A stretch of DNA of 64,000 bases from Legionella tucsonensis. GTDB taxonomy: Bacteria > Pseudomonadota > Gammaproteobacteria > Legionellales > Legionellaceae. The first letter of the stretch is position 1. Every line of letters starts with the position of its first letter. Of the stretch, positions 32,886 to 53,219 are shown piece by piece. The stretch is taken from assembly GCF_001468035.1 (NCBI RefSeq), contig NZ_LNZA01000001.1:2430328-2494327 (forward strand). The letters run 5' to 3'. The position numbers were made by a program, and so were the translations under genes. Under the pieces are notes generated by a model. That model searched no databases, was not told the DNA's origin, and saw nothing but the letters and a program-made list of their open reading frames with translations.

Positions 32886-33974
32886 ATGCCATCAAAAAAA
32901 GGAATCTATCTTTTTACTTTAATTGGCTTACTCCTTGGATTCGCACTTGATGGATTAATTCGCAATGAAATTACCAAGCTCTTTGATTATAGCTTAATCA
33001 GTCTTTTTGCCCTTTTGTATGGGTTGGCTTATAACGAAAAAAATTCTTTTCGCTTAGTTGCCAGCAGTTTCATTATCGCGCTGTTCCTGTCTTTACCCTT
33101 GCTTCCTATAGAAGCTCGTTATACATCCTTACATCTCGAGCATTGGATTACATTTCTGAGCGCCTTTCCACTATTTGTCTATGTGGGGCATTCATTTCAC
33201 TATGCATTCCATCATGATAATACATGGCGTATCAGTTATAACAGCTTATTTGCTGCTGTATGGAATACTATTCTTCTGCTTTTTGTTGCTTCTTTGTTTT
33301 CATCTTTAGCCAATGTACTTATCCTGTTAGGCGCTTTTATTTTTAAAACTGTAGGTAATGATTTTTTATGGAATTTATATTCCAATAATATCCATTTTCA
33401 ATTGATTTCTCATGTTACTTTATTTTTTATAGGATTAGGGGTCGGTCAGCAAAACATCAAAATTATCTATAGCTTGCGCTTTTTACTGCTAAGAATGATG
33501 TACTATTTATTTCCTTTCTTGGCCTTGATTAGTATCGTGTATTTTATTCTTTATCTAAGCCATTTTCTCAGTGGTGGTGAAGAATACGTCAATCCCCTGA
33601 TTATTTTAATTCCATTAACTGCACTAGGAATTATATTTTATAATGCATACTTTCAAGATGGAAGTACGGAATCAGGAGCCGCATCCTGGCTTAAGTTATC
33701 ATTACGTATTTATCGAGTGATTTTATTCTTTTTGGTTTTAATGATGACTTATAAAATTTTCCAATCCTACTCTGTGGACGTTAATGTCGTCATTTATATC
33801 ATCACGGGGATTTTATACAGTCTAACTTATGCAATTACGGCCTGGCTCCCTGAAAATCTAGAGAAAAAATGGGTGCGAATAGGTAACATTAGTTCTGCAT
33901 TATATTTTATAATCGTTCTCTTTTTATTCAATCTGCCTTATATGCCAATAATATTTCAGGTGGGGTCTCAATAA
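32886..33974 (+). CDS. Polytopic membrane protein (DUF4153-like)
   Basis: A 362-residue protein with about ten hydrophobic helices and short loops. Overall pattern and length suit the DUF4153 group, sometimes seen as sensors or scaffolds, but the assignment is weak. ATG 32886 is used because AAGGAGA lies upstream; the frame open from 32799 has no ribosome site. Charged residues are few apart from the ends. It stands between the coiled-coil gene and the lipid biosynthesis cluster, convergent with the latter; no functional tie is visible. Confidence 0.75.
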   Translation: MPSKKGIYLFTLIGLLLGFALDGLIRNEITKLFDYSLISLFALLYGLAYNEKNSFRLVASSFIIALFLSLPLLPIEARYTSLHLEHWITFLSAFPLFVYVGHSFHYAFHHDNTWRISYNSLFAAVWNTILLLFVASLFSSLANVLILLGAFIFKTVGNDFLWNLYSNNIHFQLISHVTLFFIGLGVGQQNIKIIYSLRFLLLRMMYYLFPFLALISIVYFILYLSHFLSGGEEYVNPLIILIPLTALGIIFYNAYFQDGSTESGAASWLKLSLRIYRVILFFLVLMMTYKIFQSYSVDVNVVIYIITGILYSLTYAITAWLPENLEKKWVRIGNISSALYFIIVLFLFNLPYMPIIFQVGSQ

Positions 33975-34004
33975 CAAATTGTCAAGAAAAGATTCATATC
34001 TTTT

Positions 34005-34721
34005 TTATTCTATATCAGGAGTAGGTCTGATATTACCAAATCGCGTATTTTCCTCAACCACCTGATTGACAAAGGTATTTCCGTAACCAATCCAGCATCC
34101 CTTTTTAATGGTCGTTCCTGGACCAATAGTGGTCGACATACCTATAAAAACATTATCTTCAATAATTACAGGAGCAAGGAAGAGTAAACTGCCTACATCA
34201 GAGTGACAACTAATTGACGTACCACTCCCAATAGTGACATTTTTTCCGATAGTGATTAATGGGCAATCAACAAAATCTATGTCAAAAGAATTTATAATTT
34301 GAAAGGAAACTTTAGCGCCTAATGCACGCCAATAAAAAAACTTAATCACATTGAATGTTTGCAATAAGGGAGTTAGACCTACCACTTTAGCAGAACGAGC
34401 AAGAGCAAAATGACAAAACCAGGCAATAGTCATTTGATTCATTTCACGTTTATACCGGCCCGGTTTTAAGCGGGGCAAACACAACCTAATTGCTGCAATA
34501 ATCATAATAAAAGAAGCAAATAAAACAAAAGGAGCCATCGGAAGAACCAGCCAAGTGCATACATAGCCATGATAAATAAATAAACCCATTAAGCTAAAAG
34601 CAAAAACACTAGGCATCAAACTAAATAAGATGGATACCAGGTCAATAATAAGAAGCATAGAGGTAGTTAACTCAGCTTTTACCGGAGTTTTTTTTGACTT
34701 GGTTTTATTCTTCTCGGTCAT
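34005..34721 (-). CDS. Membrane-anchored hexapeptide-repeat acyltransferase
   Basis: A 238-residue protein. The N-terminal part has a basic leader and two membrane helices (about residues 22-45 and 52-78). The C-terminal half is a left-handed beta-helix built from hexapeptide repeats, with IGKNVTIGSGTSIS, then VIIEDNVFIGMSTTIGPGTTI and KKGCWIGYG. Such LbH domains transfer acyl groups; this layout resembles the C-terminal transferase module found with nonribosomal or lipid adenylating enzymes. It is the last gene of the minus-strand arm of the lipid cluster, 54 bases after the GH3 gene, and could release or esterify the product at the membrane. Confidence 0.85.
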   Translation of the reverse strand: MTEKNKTKSKKTPVKAELTTSMLLIIDLVSILFSLMPSVFAFSLMGLFIYHGYVCTWLVLPMAPFVLFASFIMIIAAIRLCLPRLKPGRYKREMNQMTIAWFCHFALARSAKVVGLTPLLQTFNVIKFFYWRALGAKVSFQIINSFDIDFVDCPLITIGKNVTIGSGTSISCHSDVGSLLFLAPVIIEDNVFIGMSTTIGPGTTIKKGCWIGYGNTFVNQVVEENTRFGNIRPTPDIE

Positions 34722-34775
34722 AACATGATGCTCCCTTTTTTATAATAGTTTGGCATAGACGCGAGACATCGAAAC

Positions 34776-36302
34776 TCATTTTTCCGTAATTACTTGCTGA
34801 GAAATAAGCTTTGGTTTAGTCTGCGCATGACTATCTGCTAATAATTCATCTCTTGGCAATTGGAATAAAACCATAGGCAGCACTTCTTTAGTACTCACAC
34901 CATGGGCATAAGGCTCATTAATTTGCATTAAACGCTCATGCATCTGCCCTAATATGGAATCAGATATTTGAGTTGTATCGTCGGTAACAAAAACAATCCT
35001 ATTTCCCAAGCTATTTCGTGCAAAATACCAGTGCGGCGCTAAATCAAAAGAAATACCACATAACATTTCCTGTAATTCTTGGCCAGAAATAGAACAACTC
35101 TCCAATTTAAGCATTTGTGTCTTGTAACAAAATTCAAGCCTTGGTGCTTTATTTAAAAAGTCGATACATTTCACTACATCCTTTAGTTGATAACGGACAA
35201 AGCCCATAGCCGTAGTTAAAAACACTTCATAATTTTTGCCTTGCTCTAACTCCCAGGATTGTAAAAGGTTCTCTTTTTTAATGGGCTTACCTTCTTCAAT
35301 AAACTCAGTAATATGTGCACCAGGATGCAAAAAACCTCCACGTTGATTGTCAATTGGAACAGTAAGCCATCCTTCTGTAGCGGAAAAAGTACCATCAACC
35401 ATCTCAACCCCAGGTCCTAACAATTTTTTTAATTGTCGTGCAGGATATTCACAAAGACTTGAAATCCAACATCCAACTACAGTCAATGATGGCCAAAAAT
35501 CTTTGAATGAGCCTGAATCTTGCTGTGACAATTGACGCAAATAACGCTGACGTTTCTTCGTCACTTGAAGTGGCGGCAAAAAGTCAGGAACAACTTTTTC
35601 ACCTAATAAATAGGGTAAAAAATAATTAAAATTTTTAAGGCAGCGCTCAAAAAGAGCATCAATAACCATGGGCGTGACTGCAAATATAGCGCTAAGATCA
35701 GACGCTAAGGCATACAAAGCGGACCATTGAGTATAGACTTCCGTGCTGTCGAGTACTTCATCAGGCATAGCATAAAAACGTTTAATAAAAGAAGGTAAAG
35801 TACGATAATTAAAATTGCTAATCCAACCCGAAGGGATGCCGGCAGGTGACGTTCTATGAGAATCTATCGCGGCCAAATACAGTATTTTTTCTTGAAACAA
35901 GCCGGGGTAGTTCTGAGCCAGATTATAAATATAAGGAGGCATGGTACGCTGAAACTGTGCTCGAAAAGATTCAGTAATCGGAAAAAATTTTCGAACACCA
36001 GCTGTTCCTGAAGTTTCTGACCAAAAAATCAATTTTTCCCCATTAAAGGGTTGAATAAGACCGTGTTGTGCAGCCAAAAGATCTTTTTCATAATCTTCAT
36101 AAGTTGTAATTGGAAAATTATTCAGACTTAAAGTTTGGCGATTTTGTAATAAAGGAGACCAATAAGCAGATTTTTTTAATAAAGGTACAATTTCTTGATT
36201 CCACAGCCTTTCACGAGAACGTTCGGGGTATTGGGTATCTTTAATAAAAGTCAGATATTTTTTTCGGGTAATTGCCGCAATTAATCTTCTTTTCCAATTC
36301 AT
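34776..36302 (-). CDS. GH3-family acyl-adenylating enzyme
   Basis: A 508-residue protein of the GH3 superfamily, named after plant enzymes that join amino acids to hormones such as jasmonate or auxin through an acyl-adenylate. The ATP motifs are visible: WSETSGTAGVRKFFP near residue 100, DGTFSATEG near residue 305 and LTTAMGFVRYQLKDVV near residue 365. ATG 36302 is chosen over a TTG fifteen bases upstream; neither has a good ribosome site. Located in the minus-strand arm of the lipid cluster, directly behind a 144-bp inverted-repeat element. Likely forms an amide or ester between a fatty or keto acid and an unknown acceptor. Confidence 0.88.
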   Translation of the reverse strand: MNWKRRLIAAITRKKYLTFIKDTQYPERSRERLWNQEIVPLLKKSAYWSPLLQNRQTLSLNNFPITTYEDYEKDLLAAQHGLIQPFNGEKLIFWSETSGTAGVRKFFPITESFRAQFQRTMPPYIYNLAQNYPGLFQEKILYLAAIDSHRTSPAGIPSGWISNFNYRTLPSFIKRFYAMPDEVLDSTEVYTQWSALYALASDLSAIFAVTPMVIDALFERCLKNFNYFLPYLLGEKVVPDFLPPLQVTKKRQRYLRQLSQQDSGSFKDFWPSLTVVGCWISSLCEYPARQLKKLLGPGVEMVDGTFSATEGWLTVPIDNQRGGFLHPGAHITEFIEEGKPIKKENLLQSWELEQGKNYEVFLTTAMGFVRYQLKDVVKCIDFLNKAPRLEFCYKTQMLKLESCSISGQELQEMLCGISFDLAPHWYFARNSLGNRIVFVTDDTTQISDSILGQMHERLMQINEPYAHGVSTKEVLPMVLFQLPRDELLADSHAQTKPKLISQQVITEK

Positions 36303-36320
36303 CCCATTGCCAGCCAAAAT

Positions 36321-36464
36321 AGAGTTCTTGCATAACCGGTGAATTTTTCTTTAGTGCAAGGCGTAACCGTTTCGAGGAGCGGAGTTTACATGGAGTAAAT
36401 GAGCACCGGAGAAACGGTTGCAACGCAGCAATAAAGTAAAAGGTTCCGGTTATGCAAGAACTCT
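36321..36464. mobile_element. MITE-like inverted-repeat element, 144 bp
   Basis: Perfect 19-bp terminal inverted repeats (36321-36339 and 36446-36464, AGAGTTCTTGCATAACCGG and its complement). Nested inside is a second palindrome, AACCGTTTC at 36365-36373 with GAAACGGTT at 36411-36419, and a small inner stem TTTAC/GTAAA. The flanks repeat AAT on both sides, a possible 3-bp target duplication. There is no coding frame. The whole RNA would fold into one long interrupted hairpin. It lies between two genes of one operon, 18 bases before the GH3 start. Confidence 0.8.
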
Positions 36465-36520
36465 AATGAATACGATACGAAATGATAACTTCAAAAACCA
36501 AAGTTGGCGAGGTGATTTTT

Positions 36521-38212
36521 CTAGACGGGTATTTTAATTGGAACTACAGAGAACATTTTATGTTGCTCATAAAACAGAACTAAATGCTCTGCCATAGATT
36601 CTTGCAACTCAGGTTCAATGTTTACGTGCCCATTTAATTTATTAAGAATAAATTGAATTGCCAAATTAAGCCAGTCCAAACCCCGTAATTCTTTATCCAT
36701 TAACTCCTGATTATGATGCCAAAGATGAACACAACAACTCGCTGCAAAAATCCAGCAATAGTGTTCTGCCAATCGAAAAGCGGTCAGACTGCGCGGGTCA
36801 AATTGTTTTTGCTCATGCAAAGCAATTACTTGTCGATCCAAACGCTTTAGTTCACTACGAATCATTCTGATTAATGGTCTGATTTTTTTTGATTTCAGCA
36901 CAGATAAACCAGCCAGAATATCGTCTTCGGCAAAAGTAAAAAGACCCAGGCGGTTCAGAGAAAACTCAGGACAAATACATTTGAGATTAAAAATATGCTC
37001 CATTTTTTGTAACTGACTTGGGGAACAACTCCCTCTCATCCCGGCCTGGGGTACTAAATTACCCGCAATCACCGATAAATTGACCTGGCTGCTTCCGTCA
37101 AATAAACCCACCACAGAAATATCACGTCTGATTTTTTGAAACATAGCCCACTCTGTTGTGCGTAAATAAGCACGTGCACCCATCACTACGCTGCATTCTT
37201 CAACGATTCCTTCAGTTATTTTGGGAATGAGAAATTTAATAATGGCAGACCAAAAAGATAATTTTTCAGGGATTACTGAGGCGGCACGCACCACTGTAAA
37301 AGCGGTACAATCCGCTATGAGTAACTGAGCAAACTGCTCCCCCAAACGCTGTTTTACCACGGGAATTTCATAGGCAGTCTTCCCATACAACTTCCTGTGT
37401 AAACTAAAAGAAAGGGTTAATCGCAAAGCAGTATCTGCAGCACCAAGAGAAAAAGAAGCACATAGAGTTCTTGAAACCTGTAGCGTTTTATGAATGATTT
37501 CTAAACCACGTTTTTCTTCCCCAATCAATGCATCATGAGGCAAAAAAACCTTATCCAAAGAAAAGCCGCTGATATCCAACCCCCTGACCCCAAGTGTAGG
37601 AAGTTTGGGCGTTGGCATAAAGCCTGATTGAATTGTCGATTTATCCAGAAAAAAAACAGAAAAACCTAAAGGGCCTCCTCGATCATGAGTACGGCAAAGA
37701 AGAGTTACGCTCTGCCCCTGAGTAGCAAAATTAATGCACCATTTTTTCCCGGATAGCTCCCACCCATTCTTACAAGGTTGTGCTACTACTTCATTCGCCA
37801 TGATATCAGAACCATGCTCTTCTTCGGTCAAAGCACATGCTGTAATTCCACCCCTGCGTAGAGAATCTGCCAAAGCTTTTTTCTGACGCTCATTTCCTGC
37901 TATCCAAAGAGGTAAGGAACCTAAAAATGACAAGCCCAAAGCAATGCCAGTAGTTAAATCACGTCTACAAAGTGATTTTGCTAAAAAAAACGCGACATCA
38001 AGTGAAACAAACTTCCCACTAAGATGTTGAGGGATTAAGTACTCCATCACCCCCCACTGCTGAATGAATTTGATTTGCGGCCAGGCAAGTTCCTCTTGCT
38101 CATCATAGTGCAAGATTTCTTGAAAATTGACTGGTCCATCCTGTTTTGCAGGATTACCTAAATAAGCTTCGAATGAATGAATTAATTGCAACAAATCATG
38201 GTAAGAAGCCAT
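36521..38212 (-). CDS. Acyl-CoA dehydrogenase family protein
   Basis: A 563-residue flavoenzyme of the acyl-CoA dehydrogenase fold. ACALTEEEHGSDI near residue 150 is the FAD-contact motif, GWELSGKKWCINFATQG the middle-domain signature, and the region around ASFSLGAADTAL begins the C-terminal helical domain. About 150 further residues follow the usual end of the fold, as in some lipid-pathway members. ATG 38212 is taken as start because AAAGGA lies five bases ahead; the longer frame runs into the previous gene. It is 31 bases behind the carboxyltransferase gene, so the enzymes probably act in sequence, introducing a double bond in an acyl chain. Confidence 0.88.
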   Translation of the reverse strand: MASYHDLLQLIHSFEAYLGNPAKQDGPVNFQEILHYDEQEELAWPQIKFIQQWGVMEYLIPQHLSGKFVSLDVAFFLAKSLCRRDLTTGIALGLSFLGSLPLWIAGNERQKKALADSLRRGGITACALTEEEHGSDIMANEVVAQPCKNGWELSGKKWCINFATQGQSVTLLCRTHDRGGPLGFSVFFLDKSTIQSGFMPTPKLPTLGVRGLDISGFSLDKVFLPHDALIGEEKRGLEIIHKTLQVSRTLCASFSLGAADTALRLTLSFSLHRKLYGKTAYEIPVVKQRLGEQFAQLLIADCTAFTVVRAASVIPEKLSFWSAIIKFLIPKITEGIVEECSVVMGARAYLRTTEWAMFQKIRRDISVVGLFDGSSQVNLSVIAGNLVPQAGMRGSCSPSQLQKMEHIFNLKCICPEFSLNRLGLFTFAEDDILAGLSVLKSKKIRPLIRMIRSELKRLDRQVIALHEQKQFDPRSLTAFRLAEHYCWIFAASCCVHLWHHNQELMDKELRGLDWLNLAIQFILNKLNGHVNIEPELQESMAEHLVLFYEQHKMFSVVPIKIPV

Positions 38213-38243
38213 AATAATCCTTTTACTTGAGGAGAACGTATTT

Positions 38244-39662
38244 CTATACAATAGAATGTCGCGCAATCGCCAGATCATCCATTTTGCGATATAAATACTC
38301 CAAATATTGGGCCAATCTTCCTCGTATTTGTTGAGGAGCAATAATTTCATCAATTAAACCAGACCTATATGCATCCACTAAAGAAGGATCAAGATTCTGC
38401 GCATCAGTTACCTGATGCTTTATCTCTCCAAATACTTGTCCATCAGTACTTTGAACTTTTTTCGTTGTCTCTTTGCCCATCACTCCAAGAATCGCGGTCT
38501 CTAAAGCCAAAACCAAGTCTCCTTGTTGCGATGCAGTTTGCATCATCAGAAATGCTGCGGCTCCATAACATTTACGAACAATCACGCTCATCCTAGGTAC
38601 ACGGGTTTGCATCGCAGCACATAATCGGGCTCCATGCTGTAATAATCCTTTTTGCTCTTCGCGTTTTCCAGGCATAAATCCAGGAACATCAATTAAAGTA
38701 AGTACTGGAATACGATATGCATCACAGATTCGAATAAATTTAGCTGCTTTTTGTGCTGCATCTGAATCAATAGCTCCACTAAAACGAATACTCTGATTTG
38801 CAACAATACCCACTGCATACCCATGAATATGAGCAAAAGCACAAATCATGGCCTGCCCGTAAACACTTTTGTATTGCCATACTTCAGAGTTATCCACAAT
38901 CGCTTGCATCAATTCGAGCATATTAAATGGCACTCTGGGGTCAGTCGGTACATTAGGCAAGGGATGTAAAGGCTCCTGAGTGGAGTGTACAGGAGGACAT
39001 TCTCCGCTATGCGACGGAAAAAAGTTGAGCATGGTTTTAACATGATTGATTTGCGCGCTGATACTGTCATCAACAAAATCAGCAATGCCTGTAGTACTCG
39101 CGTGCATCGCTGTACCACCTAATTCACTCATACTGACCTTTTCACCGATTGCTTGTTGTACTACCATAGGGCTGGTTACCATCAGATAACTACGATGCTT
39201 GTTAAAAAAAAGCAAATCCATCAACACAGCAGAATAAGCAGGCGCACCAAGAGTTGGGGCAACGAGCACCGCAAATTGTGGAACTATACCTGATAAGTTG
39301 ATATTCTGGGCGATAATTTTCGTGTATTCATCGCCACTTAATAAGTTTTCTTCTAAAGAAATACCAGGAGACGCTAAAAAAGCGATAATTGGAATCTTTA
39401 ACTCTTTGGCTCTATCCATGAGACGCAGAATTTTTTTTGCGCCCTGGCTGGTAATGTATCCTCGGTTCACTGAATTATTATGAGCATATATTGCTACTGG
39501 TCTTTGATTTACCTTAGCTAAACCCGTAATCACTTCAGCCCCAAATTGCAAATGAGACTGATTATTCATGGCATAATCTGTAAGTAACGGAAGAAAACTG
39601 TGCTCATCAATAAGATTTTCTATCCATTTCATCGTGGTTTTATCAACAGACGATGAAGACAT
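38244..39662 (-). CDS. Acyl-CoA carboxylase carboxyltransferase (beta) subunit
   Basis: A 472-residue protein of the carboxyltransferase family (PccB/AccD5-like), with two crotonase-type halves. The first half carries NNSVNRGYITSQGAKKI and the second GYAVGIVANQ, TLIDVPGFMPGKREEQKG and YGAAAFLM. These enzymes move carboxybiotin onto an acyl-CoA to make malonyl-, methylmalonyl- or longer dicarboxyl-CoA. The subunit is shorter than typical propionyl-CoA carboxylase beta (about 510). No biotin carboxylase or biotin carrier gene lies nearby, so it must borrow one. It is first in the minus-strand arm and is divergent from the KAS operon; it may supply the extender unit. Confidence 0.88.
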   Translation of the reverse strand: MSSSSVDKTTMKWIENLIDEHSFLPLLTDYAMNNQSHLQFGAEVITGLAKVNQRPVAIYAHNNSVNRGYITSQGAKKILRLMDRAKELKIPIIAFLASPGISLEENLLSGDEYTKIIAQNINLSGIVPQFAVLVAPTLGAPAYSAVLMDLLFFNKHRSYLMVTSPMVVQQAIGEKVSMSELGGTAMHASTTGIADFVDDSISAQINHVKTMLNFFPSHSGECPPVHSTQEPLHPLPNVPTDPRVPFNMLELMQAIVDNSEVWQYKSVYGQAMICAFAHIHGYAVGIVANQSIRFSGAIDSDAAQKAAKFIRICDAYRIPVLTLIDVPGFMPGKREEQKGLLQHGARLCAAMQTRVPRMSVIVRKCYGAAAFLMMQTASQQGDLVLALETAILGVMGKETTKKVQSTDGQVFGEIKHQVTDAQNLDPSLVDAYRSGLIDEIIAPQQIRGRLAQYLEYLYRKMDDLAIARHSIV

Positions 39663-39815
39663 ATTGCACTCAACTTTTAATTAAAATTTATATAAAATAT
39701 ACACTTCGTCATTACCAGGGTCAATTTTTCCTAAAAAACAGCTATAATTTAGGCTCATTGAATTCATAGTGTAATCGAAATACAAGCAAACAAAAAAACA
39801 ATTTAAAGGTAATGT
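39663..39815. promoter_or_regulatory. Divergent promoter region of the lipid biosynthesis cluster
   Basis: The 153 bases between the carboxyltransferase gene (minus) and the KAS gene (plus) are strongly AT-rich. A TATAAT at 39743-39748 suits the plus-strand operon, 68 bases before its start, though no good -35 is seen. On the minus strand TATATTTTATA (39690s) could serve the other arm. One short region feeding both arms suggests joint control. Confidence 0.5.
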
Positions 39816-40868
39816 ATGGAAATTTTGCATCCCCACATCCGTTTTGATATTACAGCTGCAACTCGTGTTCTTCCTGATTCTCCACCGGTTACGAATCTGG
39901 AAATTTTACAAAACTTCCCACGAACATCAGGTCACTCTTTATCCTTTTTAGAAAAATTTGCTGAAAAAATCGGTGAAGAATTTGGTTTTTATTCCCGTTA
40001 TTGGTGCCATAAGCCTTGGGAGTCGTTAGATAATTCCAGGGAATTGACTGCTGAATCATTAGCCACTGAAGCAGTACAAAAATTGCTTGTGGATTATGAC
40101 TCAAAAAAAATACATGCTCTTTTATTAGGCTCTACTACCAATAAACGATTTACGGGCTCACAAGCCGCAGCAGTACTTGGAAATTTAGGAATAGATGCCC
40201 TTGCTTATGATTTAAAAACCGGCTGCTCCACTTCTTTATCAACACTTCATCTTGCCTATGCCTTAATGGCTTTAGGTTATACTAATGTGATAGTCAGTTG
40301 TGCCGAAACTTTATCCAAAGTAATCGATCCTGGAAATGAAAAAACATGGATAGGATTAGCCGATGGTGCAGCAGCCTTGCTCATGGAAAAAAAAGAAAAG
40401 GGTGCATTCACTGTTGAAAAAACCTTTTTTTCTACTGATGGGAAATACGTTGAAGCTTTTACCACTCAAGGTGTTTTTCCACCTACTAAAGAGCAAATCG
40501 ACACTATAGGCTATCATTTGATTGGTGATGAATCACTGATGAAAGAATTGGCCTATGCTAAGTACAAGCAAATACTGAATCATTTATTACCAACAGAAGA
40601 AGACAGAGAAAACATCACATGGATTATTCCTCATCAAGTGAATCGCAAATTAATTACTCAACTCCTTCAAGAGTACCAAATGAGTCATAAGGCAATTATT
40701 TGGGATTCAGATACGATTGGAAATATTGGCGGCGCTTCTGTTCTTTATTCGCTGGCAAGAGCAGTCGAGGAAAAAATTTTTGATAGGCCTGGAAAAATAC
40801 TCATGATGAGTGTAGGAGGCGGTCTCTCTTATGCGGGACAAGTCCTGCAATTCCATAAGGATGTTTAA
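39816..40868 (+). CDS. 3-oxoacyl-ACP synthase III-like ketosynthase
   Basis: A 350-residue thiolase-fold ketosynthase of the FabH type. The catalytic triad is complete: Cys137 in KTGCSTS, His273 in IPHQVN and Asn303 in GNIGG. The N-terminal 60 residues differ from housekeeping FabH. It probably condenses an acyl group with an ACP- or CoA-bound extender, or transfers an acyl chain to a hydroxyl or amine as some secondary-metabolism KAS III enzymes do. First gene of the six-gene plus-strand arm; its stop overlaps the next start. AAAGGTAATGT precedes the ATG. Confidence 0.9.
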   Translation: MEILHPHIRFDITAATRVLPDSPPVTNLEILQNFPRTSGHSLSFLEKFAEKIGEEFGFYSRYWCHKPWESLDNSRELTAESLATEAVQKLLVDYDSKKIHALLLGSTTNKRFTGSQAAAVLGNLGIDALAYDLKTGCSTSLSTLHLAYALMALGYTNVIVSCAETLSKVIDPGNEKTWIGLADGAAALLMEKKEKGAFTVEKTFFSTDGKYVEAFTTQGVFPPTKEQIDTIGYHLIGDESLMKELAYAKYKQILNHLLPTEEDRENITWIIPHQVNRKLITQLLQEYQMSHKAIIWDSDTIGNIGGASVLYSLARAVEEKIFDRPGKILMMSVGGGLSYAGQVLQFHKDV

Positions 40869-42613
40869 TGAGTAAGGAGATTTTCAACTGCGTATCGCTA
40901 ATTGATGCTGTTCATTACAGAGCCTCACATACACCAAAAAAAGTAAGTTGTACTTTTATAAATAGAAATCTAGAAGAAAAAATGACTTATGCTGAATTGG
41001 ATGAACGGGCGAGAGCCATTGCAGCGCAATTACAAGTACAAGGAGCAAAACCTGGGGATAGGATCTTATTACTATTTTCTCCCGGACTTCACCTAATCCA
41101 AGCTTTTTTTGGCTGTCTTTACGCAGGTTGCATTGCTGTACCTATTTATCCTCCAGCCCAAGCCAAATTATTAGATAAAGCGCATCGCATTATCCGGAAT
41201 GCAAAACCCGTATTGGTGATTATGATTGCTGATCATCTAGCGAAGTTTGCTACCCTGGATCACCAAGGAAAACCGTATTTAGATAAAGTTCCATGCTTAG
41301 CCATAGACAATATGAAACTGCAAATAAGTGCTTTTTGGCAACCGCCTTCTATTCGCGAACATCACATTGCTTTCCTACAGTACACATCAGGATCCACAAT
41401 GCATCCAAAAGGAGTCATTATCACGCATAGCAATTTACTGGATAATATCCAAAAAATATACACTGCGTTTGAATTAAATGAAGAAACCATATCTTTCAGC
41501 TGGCTCCCTCCCCATCATGATATGGGATTAATAGGCTATATTTTGACTCCTATTTATGCGGGCATACCAACCTATCTGATGTCTCCTTTTTCTTTTTTAC
41601 AAAATCCCCTTTCCTGGTTACAAAACATTAGCAAATACCGAGCAACCATAAGTGGCAGCCCCAATTTTGCTTACGATTATTGTGTGAAACGGATTAAGGA
41701 AGAAAAAAAACAAGGATTGGATTTAAGCTGCTGGCGAATTGCCTCGAATGGAGCAGAACCCATTAGAAAAGAAACATTAGAACATTTTTATCAGGCGTTT
41801 AAAAATTATGGGTTTCGCAAAGAAGCCTTTTACCCATGTTATGGTTTGGCTGAAGCTACATTATTAGTAACAGGAACTACTCCAGACACTCCCTACCGCT
41901 CGCTCCCCTTGGCTAAAGAACAATATCAGGATCATCGAGTCCATTTTTCTCAGGAGGAAAACTCACAGAGTCACAGTTTAGTCAGTTGTGGTCAATTTAT
42001 TCAAACAGTAAAAATTGTGGATCCAGAAACACTTATGCTTTGTAATAACGATCAAATTGGTGAAATTTGGGTGCACAGTAACAGTGTAGCTCAGGGATAC
42101 TGGCAACAAGATGAAGAAACACTCCAGGCATTTCATGGTAAAATTTCTAATGATCCAAGCAATCAATTGTATTTAAGAACCGGCGATTTGGGGTTTGTGC
42201 ATGAAGAGGAACTCTATGTGACGGGTCGCATTAAAGATTTGATTATTCTCTATGGAAAAAACCATTATCCACAAGACATAGAGTATTCTATTCTCCATGC
42301 CCCAGTTCATGAGTCTCTAGGTAAATGCGCTGCTTTTGTCATTCAAACAGATCATGAATACGAACTCACTGTCATGTGTGAGATAAAAAACCGTTTCATG
42401 TCACCTGAAGAGCAAGATACCTTATTCAATACCATTTTTGAACTGGTTTATCAGACACATCAACTCGAAATTCATTATATTATTCTTATCCCGCTTAAAG
42501 CCATGCCGCATACAACCAGCGGTAAAATTCGTCGAAATTTCTGTCGAAAACATGTATTGGATAATACACTTCCTATAATAGCTACGTGGCGGTTGAATAA
42601 GGTTGAGGATTAA
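40868..42613 (+). CDS. Fatty acyl-AMP ligase (FAAL)
   Basis: A 581-residue ANL-superfamily enzyme of the FAAL branch, which activates a fatty acid as acyl-AMP and loads it on an acyl carrier protein instead of CoA. Family marks include VPIYPPAQ, the P-loop TSGSTMHPKGV, SWLPPHHDMGLIG, YLRTGDLGF and GRIKDLIILYGKNHYPQDIE. The C-terminal Lys lies in TTSGKIRRN. FAALs are typical starters of lipopeptide and polyketide-lipid pathways. Its ATG overlaps the ketosynthase stop by one base, and the ACP gene lies two genes downstream. Confidence 0.93.
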   Translation: MSKEIFNCVSLIDAVHYRASHTPKKVSCTFINRNLEEKMTYAELDERARAIAAQLQVQGAKPGDRILLLFSPGLHLIQAFFGCLYAGCIAVPIYPPAQAKLLDKAHRIIRNAKPVLVIMIADHLAKFATLDHQGKPYLDKVPCLAIDNMKLQISAFWQPPSIREHHIAFLQYTSGSTMHPKGVIITHSNLLDNIQKIYTAFELNEETISFSWLPPHHDMGLIGYILTPIYAGIPTYLMSPFSFLQNPLSWLQNISKYRATISGSPNFAYDYCVKRIKEEKKQGLDLSCWRIASNGAEPIRKETLEHFYQAFKNYGFRKEAFYPCYGLAEATLLVTGTTPDTPYRSLPLAKEQYQDHRVHFSQEENSQSHSLVSCGQFIQTVKIVDPETLMLCNNDQIGEIWVHSNSVAQGYWQQDEETLQAFHGKISNDPSNQLYLRTGDLGFVHEEELYVTGRIKDLIILYGKNHYPQDIEYSILHAPVHESLGKCAAFVIQTDHEYELTVMCEIKNRFMSPEEQDTLFNTIFELVYQTHQLEIHYIILIPLKAMPHTTSGKIRRNFCRKHVLDNTLPIIATWRLNKVED

Positions 42614-42617
42614 AAAA

Positions 42618-43973
42618 ATGCAATTTCTAGCTCAAGATTCGCCAAATAAAATTGCACTAAGCGTTGAAAATCAGATTTTAAGCTTTGCTGAATTAGAAAC
42701 AGCAGTCCACAAAATGTCGTTACAATTAAAAAAATTGCCCAAAGGTCTATTGGTTTTATATGCAACAGCACAACCTCTATTTGTGATTCAATTATTAGCT
42801 GCTTTACACATCGGAAAACCGATTGCACTCCTTACCCATCACGAATCAGAGCAGGAAAAACGAGTCATTTTAAGTACCAGCATGACCGTTGATGCACAAG
42901 GTGAGCTCCTGGAAATTCAAGAAAATAATCAGATAAAGCATCATCCTGAACTCGCTTTAGTACTCTTTACATCAGGGAGCACAGGCCAAATGAAAGCGGT
43001 ACAGCTTTCTCTAAAAAATATCATTGCAAATTGTCATGCTGTCATTAATGCGCTGGAGTTTTCTCGAGTTGTCGATCAATTATTGTTTTTACCTTTATCG
43101 TACTCTTTTGGCCTTCTTGGGCAGTTACTCCCTGGGTTAAGCGCAGGAATAAAAACACAACTAATCACACAATTTACTGACATTAAAACAGTGTTTGAAA
43201 CTCGCGCTATTCCGCAAATGTGGAGTGGGGTCCCTTCTCATTGGGTCGCGATTAATAAAATGGCAACACTTTTTCCAGAAGCAGCAGCAAAAATAAAAGC
43301 GATTGTCTCAGCTGGAGCTCCTTTGAGTATTATATTGCGTGACAGCTTAATGCATTCTTTTCCTAATGCAATAATTTATAATAATTATGGTCTCACAGAA
43401 GCCTCCCCACGCGTCCTGACTTACTCCAGCAAAGATCCATTGTTCCTTGAGGATTTTGCCGGTCATCCAGTTGGTGATTGGCAGATACGTTTATCTGCGA
43501 ACAATGAGTTGCTCATTAAAGGCAGTCAACTCATGTTGGGTTATCTAGGTGAAGAAAAACAAAGCCGAATGCACGATGGTTGGTTTTATACTGGAGATTT
43601 GGCAGAGCAATTACCCTCAGGTTTGGTAGCAATTAAAGGACGATCGGATCACATCGTCAATATTGGTGGTGAAAAAGTTAATTTAATTGATATAGAGCAT
43701 AAAATTTGCCAAATTAAAGAAATTAAAGAAGTGATTGTCATACCTGTTCCTGATGAATTGTACGGTATCCGTTTACTTGCGTGTCTGGAACGAGATGGAT
43801 TCAGCACTACCACCACAGAACAAATGCTTTGTGAACAGTTAAAACACCATTTTTTACCTAGAAAACTTCCAATTAAAGTGCAATTATTGGATAAATTGCC
43901 ACGTAATCAACACGGAAAACTTGATAGAAAAGCACTGCTTCTAAGCCCAAAGGAAAAAAAACATGCACACTGA
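42618..43973 (+). CDS. AMP-dependent acyl/aryl acid or amino acid ligase (ANL superfamily)
   Basis: A 451-residue adenylating enzyme, shorter than the FAAL. The core motifs are present: LFTSGSTGQMKAVQLS, NNYGLTEASPR, GWFYTGDLAEQ, IKGRSDHIVNIGGEKVN and the catalytic Lys in RNQHGKLDRK. ATG 42618 is chosen because GAGGAT lies before it. The trimmed N terminus resembles stand-alone adenylation enzymes that load a carrier protein. Its stop overlaps the ACP start by eleven bases, so the ACP is the probable partner. The substrate is not predictable by eye. Confidence 0.9.
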   Translation: MQFLAQDSPNKIALSVENQILSFAELETAVHKMSLQLKKLPKGLLVLYATAQPLFVIQLLAALHIGKPIALLTHHESEQEKRVILSTSMTVDAQGELLEIQENNQIKHHPELALVLFTSGSTGQMKAVQLSLKNIIANCHAVINALEFSRVVDQLLFLPLSYSFGLLGQLLPGLSAGIKTQLITQFTDIKTVFETRAIPQMWSGVPSHWVAINKMATLFPEAAAKIKAIVSAGAPLSIILRDSLMHSFPNAIIYNNYGLTEASPRVLTYSSKDPLFLEDFAGHPVGDWQIRLSANNELLIKGSQLMLGYLGEEKQSRMHDGWFYTGDLAEQLPSGLVAIKGRSDHIVNIGGEKVNLIDIEHKICQIKEIKEVIVIPVPDELYGIRLLACLERDGFSTTTTEQMLCEQLKHHFLPRKLPIKVQLLDKLPRNQHGKLDRKALLLSPKEKKHAH

Positions 43974-44196
43974 ACGAATTCGCAATACATTAGCAAAAAT
44001 TGGACTTGCCTATCCATATCAAGATACATCCGCCTCACTAGAGCAAGGGGGTCTAGACAGCTTAATGTTAGCCTTACTCATTATCGAGTTAGAGCGAGAA
44101 TTCAAAATTAAGATCCCTGTCATGCCTTTAGTAAAAGAGCATTATGAATCGATAAACAGTATTGAAAAACACTTAATTGAGCTGGGGGCACAATGA
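43963..44196 (+). CDS. Acyl carrier protein of the lipid cluster
   Basis: A 77-residue carrier protein. The phosphopantetheine attachment site is Ser33 in GGLDSLM, in the family's usual place at the start of the second helix. The protein is acidic and four-helical in pattern. It differs strongly from the housekeeping AcpP motif (DSLDTVE), consistent with a dedicated carrier. It overlaps the ligase by eleven bases and the reductase by four. It probably carries the growing chain made by the flanking enzymes. Confidence 0.9.
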   Translation: MHTERIRNTLAKIGLAYPYQDTSASLEQGGLDSLMLALLIIELEREFKIKIPVMPLVKEHYESINSIEKHLIELGAQ

Positions 44197-44948
44197 ATAT
44201 TTTGATTACTGGTGGATCATCAGATATAGCTCAAGCCATAGCCAAGCGACGACTGCAATTAGGCGACACGATTATCATTACCAGCTCCAGCAAGGAAAGT
44301 CTAAACAAAACCTTGGAACATTATAAACAACAAAAAATGCAGGTTCGTGGTTTGGTATATAATTTTTCCAATCCAGAGGCCAGTAAGGAAGAACTGCAAA
44401 ATCTGCTGCAGAAACCTTTAGATGGTGTCATTCTCAACGCGTTTACACGGGTGAGCCAATTACGAAAATTACACGCGTTATCCTACCCTGCATTACGCAC
44501 TTATATTGATGATAATTTGCATGGCAATATCTGGTTAATTCATCACTTATTACCGGCTTTATTAGCCAATAAATTTGGACGATTGATTCTGATTTCCAGC
44601 CTTTCTGCAATTACAGGAACCAGTCGGTATGGCGCTTATTGTGCAACCAAAGCAGCGCTCGAAGGATTATTTTTAAATCTTGCAGTTGATTACAGTGCCA
44701 ACGATATTTTATCCAATATTGTGCGTGTTGGTTTGATTAAAACATCAAGAACTGAACAATTCTGGAAAAAGCCTGCTTATCAAGAAAAAATGGCACAAAT
44801 TATTCCTCAAGGCATGATGGGAGAAACAACACAAATAGCAGAGGCCATGGATCCCTTATTATCAAGAACCTCATTTATGACAGGCTCTGTCATTACTGTT
44901 AGTGGAGGTTTACCGCTAATGCGTTCTGAAGGAATATTATCATCATGA
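44193..44948 (+). CDS. Short-chain dehydrogenase/reductase (FabG-like ketoreductase)
   Basis: A 251-residue SDR enzyme. The Rossmann nucleotide loop is TGGSSDIAQAIA near residue 7, the catalytic Ser lies in LISSLSAI, and Tyr and Lys in YCATK. The C terminus ends in TGSVITVSGGLP, as in FabG. It most likely reduces a beta-keto group on an ACP-bound chain with NADPH. The start overlaps the ACP stop by four bases, and its own stop overlaps the next ketosynthase by four. Confidence 0.9.
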   Translation: MNILITGGSSDIAQAIAKRRLQLGDTIIITSSSKESLNKTLEHYKQQKMQVRGLVYNFSNPEASKEELQNLLQKPLDGVILNAFTRVSQLRKLHALSYPALRTYIDDNLHGNIWLIHHLLPALLANKFGRLILISSLSAITGTSRYGAYCATKAALEGLFLNLAVDYSANDILSNIVRVGLIKTSRTEQFWKKPAYQEKMAQIIPQGMMGETTQIAEAMDPLLSRTSFMTGSVITVSGGLPLMRSEGILSS

Positions 44949-45955
44949 ATTTGTTACGTGCCGAAAAAGACATATACCTCAAGGGTCCTTTTACCGCGTT
45001 GCCTGAAAGGATTGTGAGTAATCAAGAGGTACTCAATTGGATGAATAGCACACAAAGCCCAACACTGGTCAGCTTTTCAACAGGAATTAGAAACAGACGC
45101 TGGGTCAATGAAAATCAGGCATGTAGTGATTTAGCTGTACTTGCGGCAGAAAAACTGTTTGCAGCAAAGCCGACCGAAAAGAATAAAATCAACCAAATTA
45201 TTTTGGCAACTATATCAGGAGACTACCTTGCACCACCAACCAGTCCATTAGTACAACACCGACTTGGATTACAAAATACAGGGGCTTTTGATATTGGAGC
45301 AGCGTGTGCCGGTTTTGTAGTAGGTTTGCATACAAGTGCTGCTATTACTCAAGCAAGTATGGGTTCCATCTTATTAATCGCCAGCGAGATCCGCTCTAAG
45401 TTTTTAAATAAAAATAATTTTGCTACCAGTGTCCTCTTTGGCGATGGGGCAGCTGCTTGCGTTGTGTCTACCGATAAAAAAAATGCTGAATTTCGTTTTA
45501 TTGCCTCCGCTTTATTTGCTGATGGCGAAGTCAGTGATACGGTATCTATTCCTGCAGGAGGTTCACGACTGCCTGCAGCACATTGCCAAAACCCAGAGTT
45601 GTTTTACATCACGATTAAAGAAAATACCGCTCTATTCGTCAAAGCAGTACATGGTATGGTTGATGGAGCAGAAGAATTCCTCAAAGCATTAAACCTTACT
45701 ACTGCGGATATCCAATGGTTGGTCCCGCATCAAGGAAATAAAAATTTAGTTTTATCTGTTGCAAAACAATTAGGTTTTCCTGAGGAACGTATTGTTAAAA
45801 CCGTGGAAGAAACCGGTAATACTTCTGGTACAAGTGTAGGTATTGCTCTAGATTTTCTTCGCGAACACGCCCCCATCAAAGCAAAAGATAAAGCGTTATT
45901 GGTTGCTGCAGGTGGAGGAGGTATCGCCGCTTGCGCACTTTTGGAAGTGATTTAA
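44945..45955 (+). CDS. 3-oxoacyl-ACP synthase III (FabH-like)
   Basis: A 336-residue ketosynthase III with Cys121 in GAACAGF, His262 in VPHQGN and Asn292 in GNTSGTS, the standard triad. It is closer to normal FabH than the first KAS gene of this operon. It is the last gene of the plus-strand arm. Together with the FAAL, the ligase, the ACP and the reductase it can in principle run one round of chain elongation or a chain-joining step. The housekeeping fab genes are not here, so this is a dedicated copy. Confidence 0.92.
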   Translation: MNLLRAEKDIYLKGPFTALPERIVSNQEVLNWMNSTQSPTLVSFSTGIRNRRWVNENQACSDLAVLAAEKLFAAKPTEKNKINQIILATISGDYLAPPTSPLVQHRLGLQNTGAFDIGAACAGFVVGLHTSAAITQASMGSILLIASEIRSKFLNKNNFATSVLFGDGAAACVVSTDKKNAEFRFIASALFADGEVSDTVSIPAGGSRLPAAHCQNPELFYITIKENTALFVKAVHGMVDGAEEFLKALNLTTADIQWLVPHQGNKNLVLSVAKQLGFPEERIVKTVEETGNTSGTSVGIALDFLREHAPIKAKDKALLVAAGGGGIAACALLEVI

Positions 45956-45957
45956 TG

Positions 45958-45987
45958 CAGCCTGAGGTGCAGCAAAGCAGAACCCAG
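45958..45987 (+). repeat. REP-like half element
   Basis: GCAGCCTGAGGTGCAGCA followed by AAGCAGAACCCAG matches the left half of the repeat family (GCCTGGGTGAAGCGAAGC then GGAACCCGGG) with several changes. It follows the ketosynthase stop codon directly. Confidence 0.4.
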
Positions 45988-46015
45988 ATTATTCACTCCC
46001 TACAGTTTATTCTTA

Positions 46016-47332: not shown

Positions 47333-47481
47333 ATTTTTCCCGACGAAGATTCGTCCTTCCTTCTTTTATTATATATCTTTTTAAAAAATAGAGTTAAAAA
47401 CAACTTGGAAAAATAAGGCCATATGTATAATTTTATTGCATCAATAAGAGTCATCGAATAATCTAGTGACTCAAATAAAAA

Positions 47482-48438: not shown

Positions 48439-48446
48439 TTAGAATT

Positions 48447-48480
48447 GTAGCCTGGGTGAGGGTGTAGCCGTAAACCCAGG
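48447..48480 (+). repeat. REP-like half element
   Basis: GTAGCCTGGGTGAGGGTG then TAGCCGTAAACCCAGG, a variant of the repeat family whose best copy is at 53220-53292. The ends CCTGGGT and ACCCAGG are inverted, so it can fold as a hairpin behind the preceding gene. Confidence 0.45.
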
Positions 48481-48537
48481 TTTAGGATTTATTTATGAGA
48501 AAAGATGTCAAATCCATATGAGCAAAAATAAAAAAGG

Positions 48538-48771
48538 TTACGCCTGAGTAAACGCAAACAAATCTTTATAGGTATGAAAATTCATTGCATCCTCCTCAGT
48601 CACCGTTAAATTATATTCTTCGCTAAGAATAGCCAGTAACTCAACTATTTTTAAGGAATCTAAATACAAGTCTTCTATTAACGCAGTATCATTATGAATG
48701 TCTTCTGCTTTCGTACCTGATAATTTGGATATAATATTTTTTAATTCTGTCTCGGTAATTTTCACGAACAA
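48538..48771 (-). CDS. Second acyl carrier protein
   Basis: A 77-residue carrier protein with the phosphopantetheine Ser39 in YLDSLKIVELLA. It is strongly acidic and differs from both AcpP and the carrier at 43963. Its start lies six bases after the stop of the MFS exporter gene, so the two form an operon. A carrier paired with an exporter, 2.6 kb from a pathway with FAAL and ketosynthases, suggests that it belongs to the same pathway and may hold a different building block. Confidence 0.88.
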   Translation of the reverse strand: MFVKITETELKNIISKLSGTKAEDIHNDTALIEDLYLDSLKIVELLAILSEEYNLTVTEEDAMNFHTYKDLFAFTQA

Positions 48772-48777
48772 TACCTC

Positions 48778-49983
48778 TTAATGATCTCTTGAGGCCAGAT
48801 AATACCATGAAGCTAAAGAACCTAACCCTAAAATAAGTAAGATTATAGCTAAAGAGAGTTGGCCATACCATGCACCTAGAGCAATAATCCCGCTCGACAA
48901 AGCTGCACTTAAGTCTTGCATGCATGCATATAAAGCTCCTACTGTTCCCGCCATATGAGGAAATGGATGAAAAGCGCCAGCAAAGGCATTGATAAAAGTA
49001 AACCCCATTCCCATGCTAAACAAAGACATAGGAATCATGATAGAGAGTACGTTCTGCAATCCTATAAGTGACAAAAACAGCATGGTCCCCCCCCCTATTA
49101 CCATAAAGACAATTCCGATAAATACCATGTAGGACACACCTTTTTTCATCACCATTTGGCTGTTAATTATTCCGCTCACACAAATGGCGCCGGCAATAAA
49201 AATTGTCAATTGACCAAATTCTATAGGACTAAGCCCTAATGTATCCTGAAAAAGAAAAGGAGCAATCGCGAGATAACCAATTATACCTGCGGAAGCAAGA
49301 CAGGCACACAATGCATAGCCTAAAAACACTTTAGATTGTAATAAGGAAAAGTAATTCTCACGCATTACTCTGAATTGAGTTGCATGAGGATTAAGGTTTT
49401 TATTTGTTTCCGGAAGAGTGCATAATGCTAAGATCCATATAACAATACCAAATACGAGTAAAAATAAAAAATTGATACGCCATCCAAAATGCACCTGGAT
49501 ATATCCCCCGAGAACGGGAGATGCCACCATAATAAAAACGCTCACAATCCCTACATAAGAACCTATCTTAGATAAAACTCTGTCAGTAAAAAGATCGCGA
49601 ACTAGAGAGCGCCCTACTGAACCACAACATCCAATGCCAAATCCCTGAATAAAACGACCAATAATCAAAACTAAAACAGAGGGAGCGAGAAAACAGCATA
49701 AGCTGCCTAAGATACTTAGACCGACACCAAACATAAGAGGTGGTTTACGGCCAATTTTATCCGATAAAGGACCATAAAATACGTGGGAAATACCCAAGCC
49801 CAGCATAAAAAGAGATAACGTTAATTGAATGGATGCTTCATTACTGCGAAACTCTTTAGTAATGGCGGGTAATGAAGGAATATACAGATCCGTAGTCATC
49901 TGCATCAATATCATGAGCATTAAAATAACAAAAATCAGCAAAGGTTGTAACGAAACGTGTTGTACATCATTTTTTTTGTGCAT
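48778..49983 (-). CDS. Bcr/CflA-family MFS exporter
   Basis: A 401-residue major facilitator protein with twelve helices. TTDLYIPSLPAI near the N terminus, FYGPLSDKIGRKPP in the first loop and GFGIGCCGSVGRSLVRDLF in helix 5 are the marks of the Bcr/CflA drug-efflux (DHA1) group. ATG 49983 is used, with AAAAGGG upstream, rather than a TTG directly before it. It precedes the second ACP in one operon. Efflux of the product of the nearby lipid cluster is a reasonable guess. Confidence 0.88.
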   Translation of the reverse strand: MHKKNDVQHVSLQPLLIFVILMLMILMQMTTDLYIPSLPAITKEFRSNEASIQLTLSLFMLGLGISHVFYGPLSDKIGRKPPLMFGVGLSILGSLCCFLAPSVLVLIIGRFIQGFGIGCCGSVGRSLVRDLFTDRVLSKIGSYVGIVSVFIMVASPVLGGYIQVHFGWRINFLFLLVFGIVIWILALCTLPETNKNLNPHATQFRVMRENYFSLLQSKVFLGYALCACLASAGIIGYLAIAPFLFQDTLGLSPIEFGQLTIFIAGAICVSGIINSQMVMKKGVSYMVFIGIVFMVIGGGTMLFLSLIGLQNVLSIMIPMSLFSMGMGFTFINAFAGAFHPFPHMAGTVGALYACMQDLSAALSSGIIALGAWYGQLSLAIILLILGLGSLASWYYLASRDH

Positions 49984-50042
49984 CAAAAAGCCCTTTTTAA
50001 CCTGGATTCATGACCTAATCCAAACTCCATCCATGAGTGAAA

Positions 50043-50429
50043 TCACGCCATACATAGCCCTAAAATAATCAAACAACAAATAAAACCAATAAACCAAGTA
50101 GTTGATCGTAAGGAAGCCCTATCCATTAAATAAAAATAGCTATAAATAACCCTGGAAATGATAAAAATAATAGCCAAAATTTGAATTGTTATTCCGATAT
50201 GATGAGTGGCTATTGCGGTTAATGTAGCAGTCGCAAAGACAAGCAATGCCTCAAAACTGTTTTGATGGGCTGCGACTGCTCGCGCACCCATTCCTTGTAA
50301 TCTTGCCTGTTGAGCTCTTGGATAATGATTATCATATTTCCCTTCTTTTTGCATAAAATTAGCCACAACAAGCTTGAGAAGATAAGGGAACAATATCGCA
50401 ATGAATAAACAAATAATTAAAGTGGTCAT
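50043..50429 (-). CDS. MAPEG family membrane protein
   Basis: A 128-residue protein with four membrane helices and the MAPEG core (AQQARLQGMGARAVAAHQNSFEAL, split here as AQQARLQGMG and AVAAHQNSFEAL). Eukaryotic members act on glutathione and eicosanoids; bacterial members are mostly uncharacterised. Length is normal. It is read towards the exporter gene, 59 bases away, and could share its transcript. No further functional evidence. Confidence 0.85.
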   Translation of the reverse strand: MTTLIICLFIAILFPYLLKLVVANFMQKEGKYDNHYPRAQQARLQGMGARAVAAHQNSFEALLVFATATLTAIATHHIGITIQILAIIFIISRVIYSYFYLMDRASLRSTTWFIGFICCLIILGLCMA

Positions 50430-50552: not shown

Positions 50553-50709
50553 TGACCCTAGGGTAAATCTAAGCATAATAGCGAGAATATTAACTCAGTA
50601 CAATGACTCTATACTTCCTCTATCCAATAGGGAAAATAGTACTTTCTACCAATTAATTTCTTCTGTTATGATGAATTTATCAAGTTGTTATCATTTAAGG
50701 ATTGGTCTT

Positions 50710-53209: not shown

Positions 53210-53219
53210 TTTAACACAA

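What the first reader, a model, noticed from the sequence alone, without database searches (positions are those of the whole stretch)
34005..45955. Divergent lipid-type biosynthetic gene cluster with FAAL, two KAS III enzymes, ACP and GH3 adenylase
Two tightly packed operons leave a common 153-bp region. Plus arm: KAS III-like, fatty acyl-AMP ligase, second ANL ligase, ACP, SDR, KAS III, with overlaps of 1, 11, 4 and 4 bases. Minus arm: acyl-CoA carboxyltransferase, acyl-CoA dehydrogenase, GH3 adenylase, hexapeptide acyltransferase. All catalytic residues checked are intact. FAAL plus ACP plus ketosynthase is how bacteria start dedicated lipids; a carboxylase could supply the extender unit and the GH3/ANL enzymes an amide or ester bond. 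I infer a small secreted fatty-acyl product (surfactant, signal or toxin) whose structure I cannot name. This is the best candidate for an undescribed system here.
Basis: partly seen in the sequence, partly recalled or inferred. Interest (0 to 1): 0.88.

Follow-up and report, generated by a model that had tools for sequence, protein, structure and literature searches.

The report
Legionella surfactant (bbc/legionellol) gene cluster
This is very probably another species' copy of a known Legionella gene cluster that makes the lipid-like surfactant these bacteria use to slide over surfaces; it is real and well conserved, but not an undescribed system.

Summary
The gene content is as described: a plus arm of KAS III-like, FAAL, second ANL ligase, ACP, SDR and KAS III, divergent from carboxyltransferase, acyl-CoA dehydrogenase, GH3 and a hexapeptide protein. 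It is very probably the orthologue of the L. pneumophila surfactant locus bbc (product: legionellol). The six-gene arm ends in a KAS III, as bbcF is (PMC12952804); bbcB and bbcF mutants lack surfactant or spreading. The FAAL is a close orthologue of the solved FAAL 3kxw. Legionellol is assigned to lpg2223-41, a range with a KAS III (lpg2228) and an ACP (lpg2233). Nine core genes are syntenic in 19 of 19 named loci. GH3 is in 31 of 45 genus genomes: the 30 with KAS1 plus one with a contig break. No close KAS1 relative appeared in the genomes sampled outside the genus. 'Surfactant' was a good guess; 'undescribed system' was not. Not shown: the chemistry, the minus arm's role, the product in this species. 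The primary papers were not held.

The parts
39816..40868 (+). Divergent KAS III-like ketosynthase (KAS1), first gene of the plus arm; probable bbcA position
   Evidence: PF08541/PF08545; motifs TGCST/PHQVN/GNIGG, with the Cys, His and Asn kept in 20 of 20; orthologue E<=2.7e-140 in 30 of 45 genus genomes; no close relative in the genomes sampled outside the genus
40868..42613 (+). Fatty acyl-AMP ligase (FAAL); probable bbcB position
   Evidence: NCBIfam FAAL models, all below their cut-offs; orthologue of solved FAAL 3kxw/3lnv, E 1.6e-296
42603..43973 (+). Second ANL adenylate-forming enzyme, MenE-like by best NCBIfam hit but below cut-off
   Evidence: PF00501/PF13193; TIGR01923 170.3 bits against a cut-off of 330.15; P-loop in 19 of 20, the exception being a split frame in L037
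43963..44196 (+). Acyl carrier protein with LDSL phosphopantetheine site
   Evidence: PF00550; LDSLM in 20 of 20
44193..44948 (+). SDR, FabG-like ketoreductase
   Evidence: PF13561/PF00106; YxxxK in 20 of 20
44945..45955 (+). KAS III ketosynthase (KAS2), sixth gene; probable bbcF
   Evidence: PF08541/PF08545; AACAG/PHQGN/GNTSG in 20 of 20; bbcF is a KAS III (PMC12952804)
39663..39815 (.). 153-bp divergent intergenic region
   Evidence: alignment with 19 loci shows two clade types and only short conserved AT-rich stretches; one minus-strand sigma-70-like match at 39724-39696, but promoter-like matches in 33900-50100 are not above shuffles
38244..39662 (-). Carboxyltransferase (MmdA/propionyl-CoA carboxylase beta-like), no biotin carboxylase partner in the window
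   Evidence: PF01039; PDB carboxylase beta chains; the genome's two Biotin_carb_C matches lie outside the window
36521..38215 (-). Acyl-CoA dehydrogenase-like flavoprotein with Asp at the usual catalytic Glu position and a C-terminal extension
   Evidence: PF02770/PF00441, domains end at residue 386 of 564; FDGSS or FDGST in 20 of 20; alignment to 2dvl
34776..36317 (-). GH3-family acyl-adenylating ligase
   Evidence: PF03321/PF23571; remote to plant GH3 structures, best E 1.2e-12; in 31 of 45 genus genomes
34005..34721 (-). Hexapeptide (left-handed beta-helix) acyltransferase-like protein; looser member
   Evidence: PF00132/PF14602, NCBIfam TIGR02353 below cut-off; in 17 of 19 named loci, but 1.4-2.9 kb from GH3 in L032, L034, L035, L037 and L038 and not found near GH3 in G001
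48538..48771 (-). Second ACP, next to the MFS gene; optional satellite of the cluster
   Evidence: PF00550; LDSLK in 17 of 17; in 16 of 19 named loci; no meaningful similarity to the first ACP
48778..49986 (-). MFS transporter paired with the second ACP; optional satellite
   Evidence: PF07690; within 12 kb of KAS1 in 27 of 30 genomes with KAS1; matches at E<=1e-60 also in 6 of 14 genomes without the cluster

Best explanation
This is the orthologue, in another Legionella species, of the L. pneumophila bbc surfactant locus (legionellol cluster). Likely mechanism: the FAAL activates a free fatty acid as acyl-AMP and loads it on the holo-ACP (family knowledge, and FAAL orthology shown here). One or both KAS III enzymes extend or join the chain with a malonyl-type unit, and the SDR reduces the new keto group to a hydroxyl, which makes the chain amphiphilic (inferred). 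The second ANL ligase and the GH3 enzyme activate a second acid or form an ester or amide, while the carboxyltransferase and acyl-CoA dehydrogenase supply or tailor an extender unit (inferred, weak). The product is exported, lowers surface tension and lets cells slide. In L. pneumophila the loss of surfactant or spreading in bbcB and bbcF mutants is published; in the window's species it is inferred from orthology.
For: Gene set and motifs. bbcF is a KAS III needed for surfactant (PMC12952804); bbcB null mutants lack surfactant. Legionellol is assigned to lpg2223-41, a range that holds lpg2228 = KAS III and lpg2233 = putative ACP. lpg2222 is a Sel1/TPR-repeat gene, and an 8-repeat Sel1 gene lies between GH3 and the hexapeptide gene in L. 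norrlandica L037, with an apparent homologue (by eye, from the N-terminal letters) in L032, L034, L035 and L038. Nine core genes in order in 19 of 19 named loci. GH3 and KAS1 lie under 7 kb apart on one contig in 29 of 31 genomes; in the other two, G026 and G030, they lie on different contigs or KAS1 is missing at a contig edge.
Against: I had no annotated L. pneumophila genome, and L. pneumophila is not among the 19 named loci, so the match of bbc and lpg names to these genes is a chain of indirect anchors. The primary papers (Stewart 2011, Johnston 2016) were not held; the two-operon description bbcABCDEF plus bbcGHIJK is recalled. bbcGHIJK would have five genes, while the window's minus arm has four, one of them loosely linked. 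In G001 no Sel1 or hexapeptide gene was found in the 3.4 kb fetched beyond GH3, and an extra 287-aa ORF lies between CT and KAS1. PMC5126622 shows the legionellol cluster in a supplement headed 'Unique BGCs in Legionella' and once calls the compound hydrophilic, which sits oddly with a widely held surfactant locus; I did not see that supplement. No surfactant phenotype is known to me for this species.
Confidence: 0.87

Rival explanations
1. Same locus, different end product: in the bozemanae-type clade the adjacent hexapeptide acyltransferase and its minus-arm neighbours decorate the lipid, so the species makes a legionellol variant with perhaps another role.
For: The hexapeptide gene is directly next to GH3 in 12 of 19 named loci (L022-L031, L039, L040), but 1.4-2.9 kb away in five and not found in L033 and L036. 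In L032-L038, identity to the window falls to 58-66% for ANL2 and 58-63% for ACAD while KAS2 stays at 79-83%.
Against: The nine core genes are the same in all 19 loci; ANL2 and ACAD are also under purifying selection. No product structure was seen.
Confidence: 0.25
2. A dedicated membrane or storage lipid pathway, not a secreted product; the surfactant phenotype would be a side effect of altered lipids.
For: The ten genes of the finding look like lipid enzymes by Pfam, and no transporter family is hit among them.
Against: Published bbcB and bbcF mutants lack surfactant or spreading, and PMC5126622 reports a solved polyketide, legionellol A, involved in sliding motility that might act as a surfactant.
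Confidence: 0.07
3. An undescribed signal or toxin pathway unrelated to bbc.
For: The divergent KAS1 has no match at E<=1e-25 in 98 genomes of the order outside the genus, only weak matches in 5 of 368 others of a class sample, and none at E<=1e-30 in 397 others of a phylum sample.
Against: FAAL orthology with 3kxw, synteny and the bbcF identity.
Confidence: 0.05

Closest known systems
bbc surfactant locus / legionellol cluster (lpg2223-41) of Legionella pneumophila
   Same: FAAL orthologue, six-gene arm ending in a KAS III, same genus, conserved order in relatives
   Different: Hexapeptide gene directly next to GH3, with no Sel1 gene between them as in L037; a TPR gene and a 318-aa protein without a Pfam hit lie between KAS2 and the ACP-MFS pair
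Stand-alone FAAL plus ACP initiation as in jamaicamide (JamA; PMC11837247 passages)
   Same: Separate FAAL gene near its ACP
   Different: No modular PKS or NRPS here; discrete KAS III and SDR enzymes instead
FabH/BioZ-type KAS III enzymes
   Same: KAS2 aligns over most of its length with FabH and BioZ structures
   Different: KAS1 matches FabH structures only remotely (best 2.1e-22 with a profile), is 21% identical to KAS2 over 265 aligned columns, and comes on top of two further KAS III matches elsewhere in the genome

Membership tests
bbc/legionellol surfactant locus | Six-gene operon with a KAS III as sixth gene (bbcF) | tested here: met
   Window 39816-45955, KAS III last; bbcF = KAS III (PMC12952804); the operon's six-gene size is recalled from the name bbcABCDEF
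bbc/legionellol surfactant locus | Orthology of the FAAL to the L. pneumophila FAAL | tested here: met
   3kxw, E 1.6e-296 over residues 2-581; that 3kxw is L. pneumophila lpg2229 is recalled, the call prints no organism
bbc/legionellol surfactant locus | Second adjacent operon (bbcGHIJK, five genes; recalled) | tested here: inconclusive
   A divergent second arm exists with three core genes plus a looser fourth; gene-by-gene identity not tested
bbc/legionellol surfactant locus | Chromosomal place beside the lpg2222 Sel1-repeat gene in the pneumophila clade | tested here: inconclusive
   Sel1 gene between GH3 and the hexapeptide gene in L037 (8 Sel1 repeats), apparent homologues in L032, L034, L035, L038; not found in the 3.4 kb fetched beyond GH3 in G001
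bbc/legionellol surfactant locus | Needed for surfactant and sliding in the bearer | not testable with these tools
   Published for L. pneumophila only in what I read
bbc/legionellol surfactant locus | Product is legionellol | not testable with these tools
   The structure paper was not held
Fatty acyl-AMP ligase (FAAL) | FAAL models and FAAL structures score far above CoA ligases | tested here: met
   NCBIfam bits: PRK05850 425.8, PRK09192 409.9, FadD32 380.5, FadD21 354.9, FadD28 305.1, MbtM 199, against 152.4 for the acyl-CoA ligase PRK06187; PRK07768, labelled a CoA ligase, scores 318.2; the top model is PRK05691, a synthase with such a domain, 506.5; none of these reaches its curated cut-off. 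3kxw: 987.6 bits
Modular PKS/NRPS cluster | Multidomain KS-AT or C-A-T synthases | tested here: not met
   Only discrete proteins in 34005-45955
Biotin-dependent acyl-CoA carboxylase | Biotin carboxylase partner encoded with the carboxyltransferase | tested here: not met
   The genome's two Biotin_carb_C matches lie outside the window; a partner shared from elsewhere is possible; no separate search for a biotin carrier protein was made

The most novel reading that the evidence does not exclude
The bozemanae-type clade of Legionella makes a chemically distinct, acyl-decorated relative of legionellol. KAS1 is a genus-specific branch of KAS III that condenses two ACP- or CoA-bound long chains, and the Asp-type dehydrogenase and the orphan carboxyltransferase form an extender unit with few parallels.
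Probability: 0.15. Interest if true: 0.45.

Novelty: new member of a known kind. Interest (0 to 1): 0.22.

Why it matters
It turns an 'unknown' cluster into a named one. Judged by two marker genes from its two arms (KAS1 and GH3), the locus is a present-or-absent block in the genus, in 31 of 45 genomes, with no close KAS1 relative in the genomes sampled outside it. That gives a testable prediction about which species can slide. It also flags parts whose chemistry I could not find explained in the passages I read: a genus-specific KAS III, an Asp-type acyl-CoA dehydrogenase and a carboxyltransferase without a local partner.

Tried and rejected
Considered and rejected: modular PKS/NRPS (no multidomain genes); a housekeeping fatty-acid operon (the genome has two further KAS III matches elsewhere, and KAS1 has no close relative in the order outside the genus); a chance cluster (synteny and dN/dS); MFS/second ACP as a core part (the MFS has matches at E<=1e-60 in 6 of 14 genomes without the cluster: one 90%, three 73-74%, one 48%, one 39% identical; several genomes also hold a second copy). 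Led nowhere: the promoter/terminator scan (38 promoter-like matches against 49.1 expected, 11 terminator-like against 13.6); the intergenic alignment (two clade types); a paper search for lpg2229 (none). A positional identity count was uninformative because it did not align the sequences; one search replaced it (83%). No structure prediction was run, because the folds are plain from sequence. The annotated collections offered (phages, plasmids, E. coli) were not searched.

Full report
Observation. Ten ORFs fill the stated span. Pfam gives the stated families for all ten; NCBIfam agrees for nine and lists nothing for GH3. The divergent gap is 153 bp. Plus-arm overlaps are 1, 11, 11, 4 and 4 bases. 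Minus-arm gaps are 28, 203 and 54 bp (with the ACAD start taken at 38215), so that arm is looser than described. In the window the motifs of both KAS III proteins, both ANL enzymes, the ACP and the SDR are intact. The acyl-CoA dehydrogenase has Asp at the position of the first Glu in the YEGTSE motif of 2dvl, and so do all 19 relatives (20 of 20). The hexapeptide protein is the weakest member.

More than chance. One scan of named genomes with a KAS1 alignment returned 19 loci, all Legionella or Fluoribacter. Its two peptide patterns came from Legionella sequences, so it reaches close relatives only, and L. pneumophila itself is not in the list. The nine core genes (CT, ACAD, GH3, KAS1, FAAL, ANL2, ACP, SDR, KAS2) are found in order in 19 of 19. 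In L. norrlandica (L037), CT and ANL2 are each split into two ORFs. The hexapeptide gene is in 17 of 19, the second ACP and the MFS in 16 of 19, and the TPR gene in 11 of 19, within the fetched flanks. dN/dS of 13 window genes against five of these loci is 0.028-0.202 in 60 computable comparisons; 5 of 65 cells are not computable, and dS is near or beyond saturation for L030 and L036.

Distribution. Among 45 genomes of the genus, KAS1 orthologues (E 2.7e-140 or better) are in 30, and the best hit of the other 15 is no better than 1.4e-17. GH3 is in 31 of 45: those 30 plus G030, whose FAAL begins at a contig edge, so that KAS1 there is cut off. GH3 and KAS1 lie within 7 kb on one contig in 29 of 31; G026 and G030 are the exceptions. 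In the order, KAS1 (E<=1e-25) is in one genus of 33: 30 of 143 genomes, none of the 98 outside the genus. In a class sample, 5 of 368 other genomes have hits of 5.9e-26 to 1.0e-29, which I take for ordinary KAS III. In a phylum sample with a stricter limit, none of 397 others reaches 1e-30. In those two samples at most five candidates per genome were scored, so very divergent relatives could be missed, and other phyla were not searched.

What it is. The FAAL is the orthologue of 3kxw/3lnv; the call names the molecule 'Saframycin Mx1 synthetase B', and that it is L. pneumophila lpg2229 is recalled. Papers, passages read: PMC12952804 says that bbcF encodes a ketoacyl-ACP synthase III for surfactant production and that the bbcF mutant does not spread. 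PMC6598767 says that a bbcB deletion makes no surfactant, and PMC3503961 says that the bbcB mutant lacks surfactant. PMC5126622 says that legionellol is ascribed to small discrete genes lpg2223-41 and that legionellol A is involved in sliding and might act as a surfactant. lpg2228 is annotated as a KAS III (PMC4273665; PMC5928044), lpg2233 as a putative ACP (PMC13200437) and lpg2222 as a TPR protein of a Sel1/TPR family (PMC2639597). In L. norrlandica a gene with 8 Sel1 repeats sits between GH3 and the hexapeptide gene. If KAS1 is lpg2228, counting along the G001 order puts the second ACP close to lpg2233; this is a consistency check, not a proof. From memory of the Stewart 2011 abstract, the locus is two adjacent operons, bbcABCDEF and bbcGHIJK, and secretion needs TolC (the paper's title, seen in reference lists, says TolC-dependent). 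Neither that paper nor Johnston 2016 was held.

How it likely works. Shown here by homology: a FAAL, an ACP, two KAS III and a ketoreductase in one tightly overlapping gene row. From family knowledge: FAALs move activated fatty acids to holo-ACP (PMC11837247 passages), and the Legionella genomes surveyed in PMC5126622 have a single Sfp-like PPTase. Inferred: KAS III extension or joining, then reduction to a hydroxylated chain; a second activated acid through ANL2 or GH3; supply or tailoring by CT and ACAD. CT has no biotin carboxylase beside it: the genome's two such matches lie outside the window, so it would borrow a partner or do another reaction. No transporter family is hit in 34005-45955. 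The neighbouring MFS is linked to KAS1 in 27 of 30 genomes (not in G026, G033 and G058), but it also has matches in 6 of 14 genomes without the cluster, so it is a neighbour, not a proven part.

Negative evidence. I had no annotated L. pneumophila genome. The fourth minus-arm gene does not stay in place across the genus. G001 has an extra 287-aa ORF between CT and KAS1, and no Sel1 or hexapeptide gene in the 3.4 kb fetched beyond GH3. PMC5126622 shows the legionellol cluster in a supplement on unique BGCs, not seen by me, and once calls the compound hydrophilic. Nothing I read tests this species. The surfactant's proposed antagonism was contradicted by a bbcB mutant that inhibits nearly as wild type does.

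Verdict. A real, conserved locus that looks functional and very probably belongs to a known system. Paper searches made for prior description.

Noticed in passing
window 50668-53974 (+): GTP cyclohydrolase II-like gene, DUF1688 gene and uracil phosphoribosyltransferase in a row, which looks like a URC-type uracil catabolism set (pathway name recalled).
   Followed up: no
window 48538-49986 (-): A second ACP paired with an MFS transporter, beside the cluster in 16 of 19 named loci; MFS matches also occur in 6 of 14 genus genomes without the cluster.
   Followed up: partly
window 36521-38215 (-), residues 372-377: Acyl-CoA dehydrogenase with Asp in place of the usual Glu in the motif, in 20 of 20 sequences compared.
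   Followed up: partly
L037 8406-9838 and 12822-14194: In L. norrlandica the carboxyltransferase and the second ANL gene are each split into two ORFs; assembly error and decay were not told apart.
   Followed up: no
L029 18792-20965: Where the ACP-MFS pair usually lies, this locus has other ORFs, two of which look by eye like an IS3-type transposase pair.
   Followed up: no
G000:C8:101800-118853 (outside the window): The same genome has two more FAAL-like matches close together, one in an open frame of 4872 aa and one in a frame of 1073 aa; similar frames recur in several genus genomes.
   Followed up: no
G034 (unnamed genus genome): Has no KAS1 or GH3 orthologue but keeps a 90% identical MFS gene, which suggests loss of the cluster or an assembly gap.
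   Followed up: no
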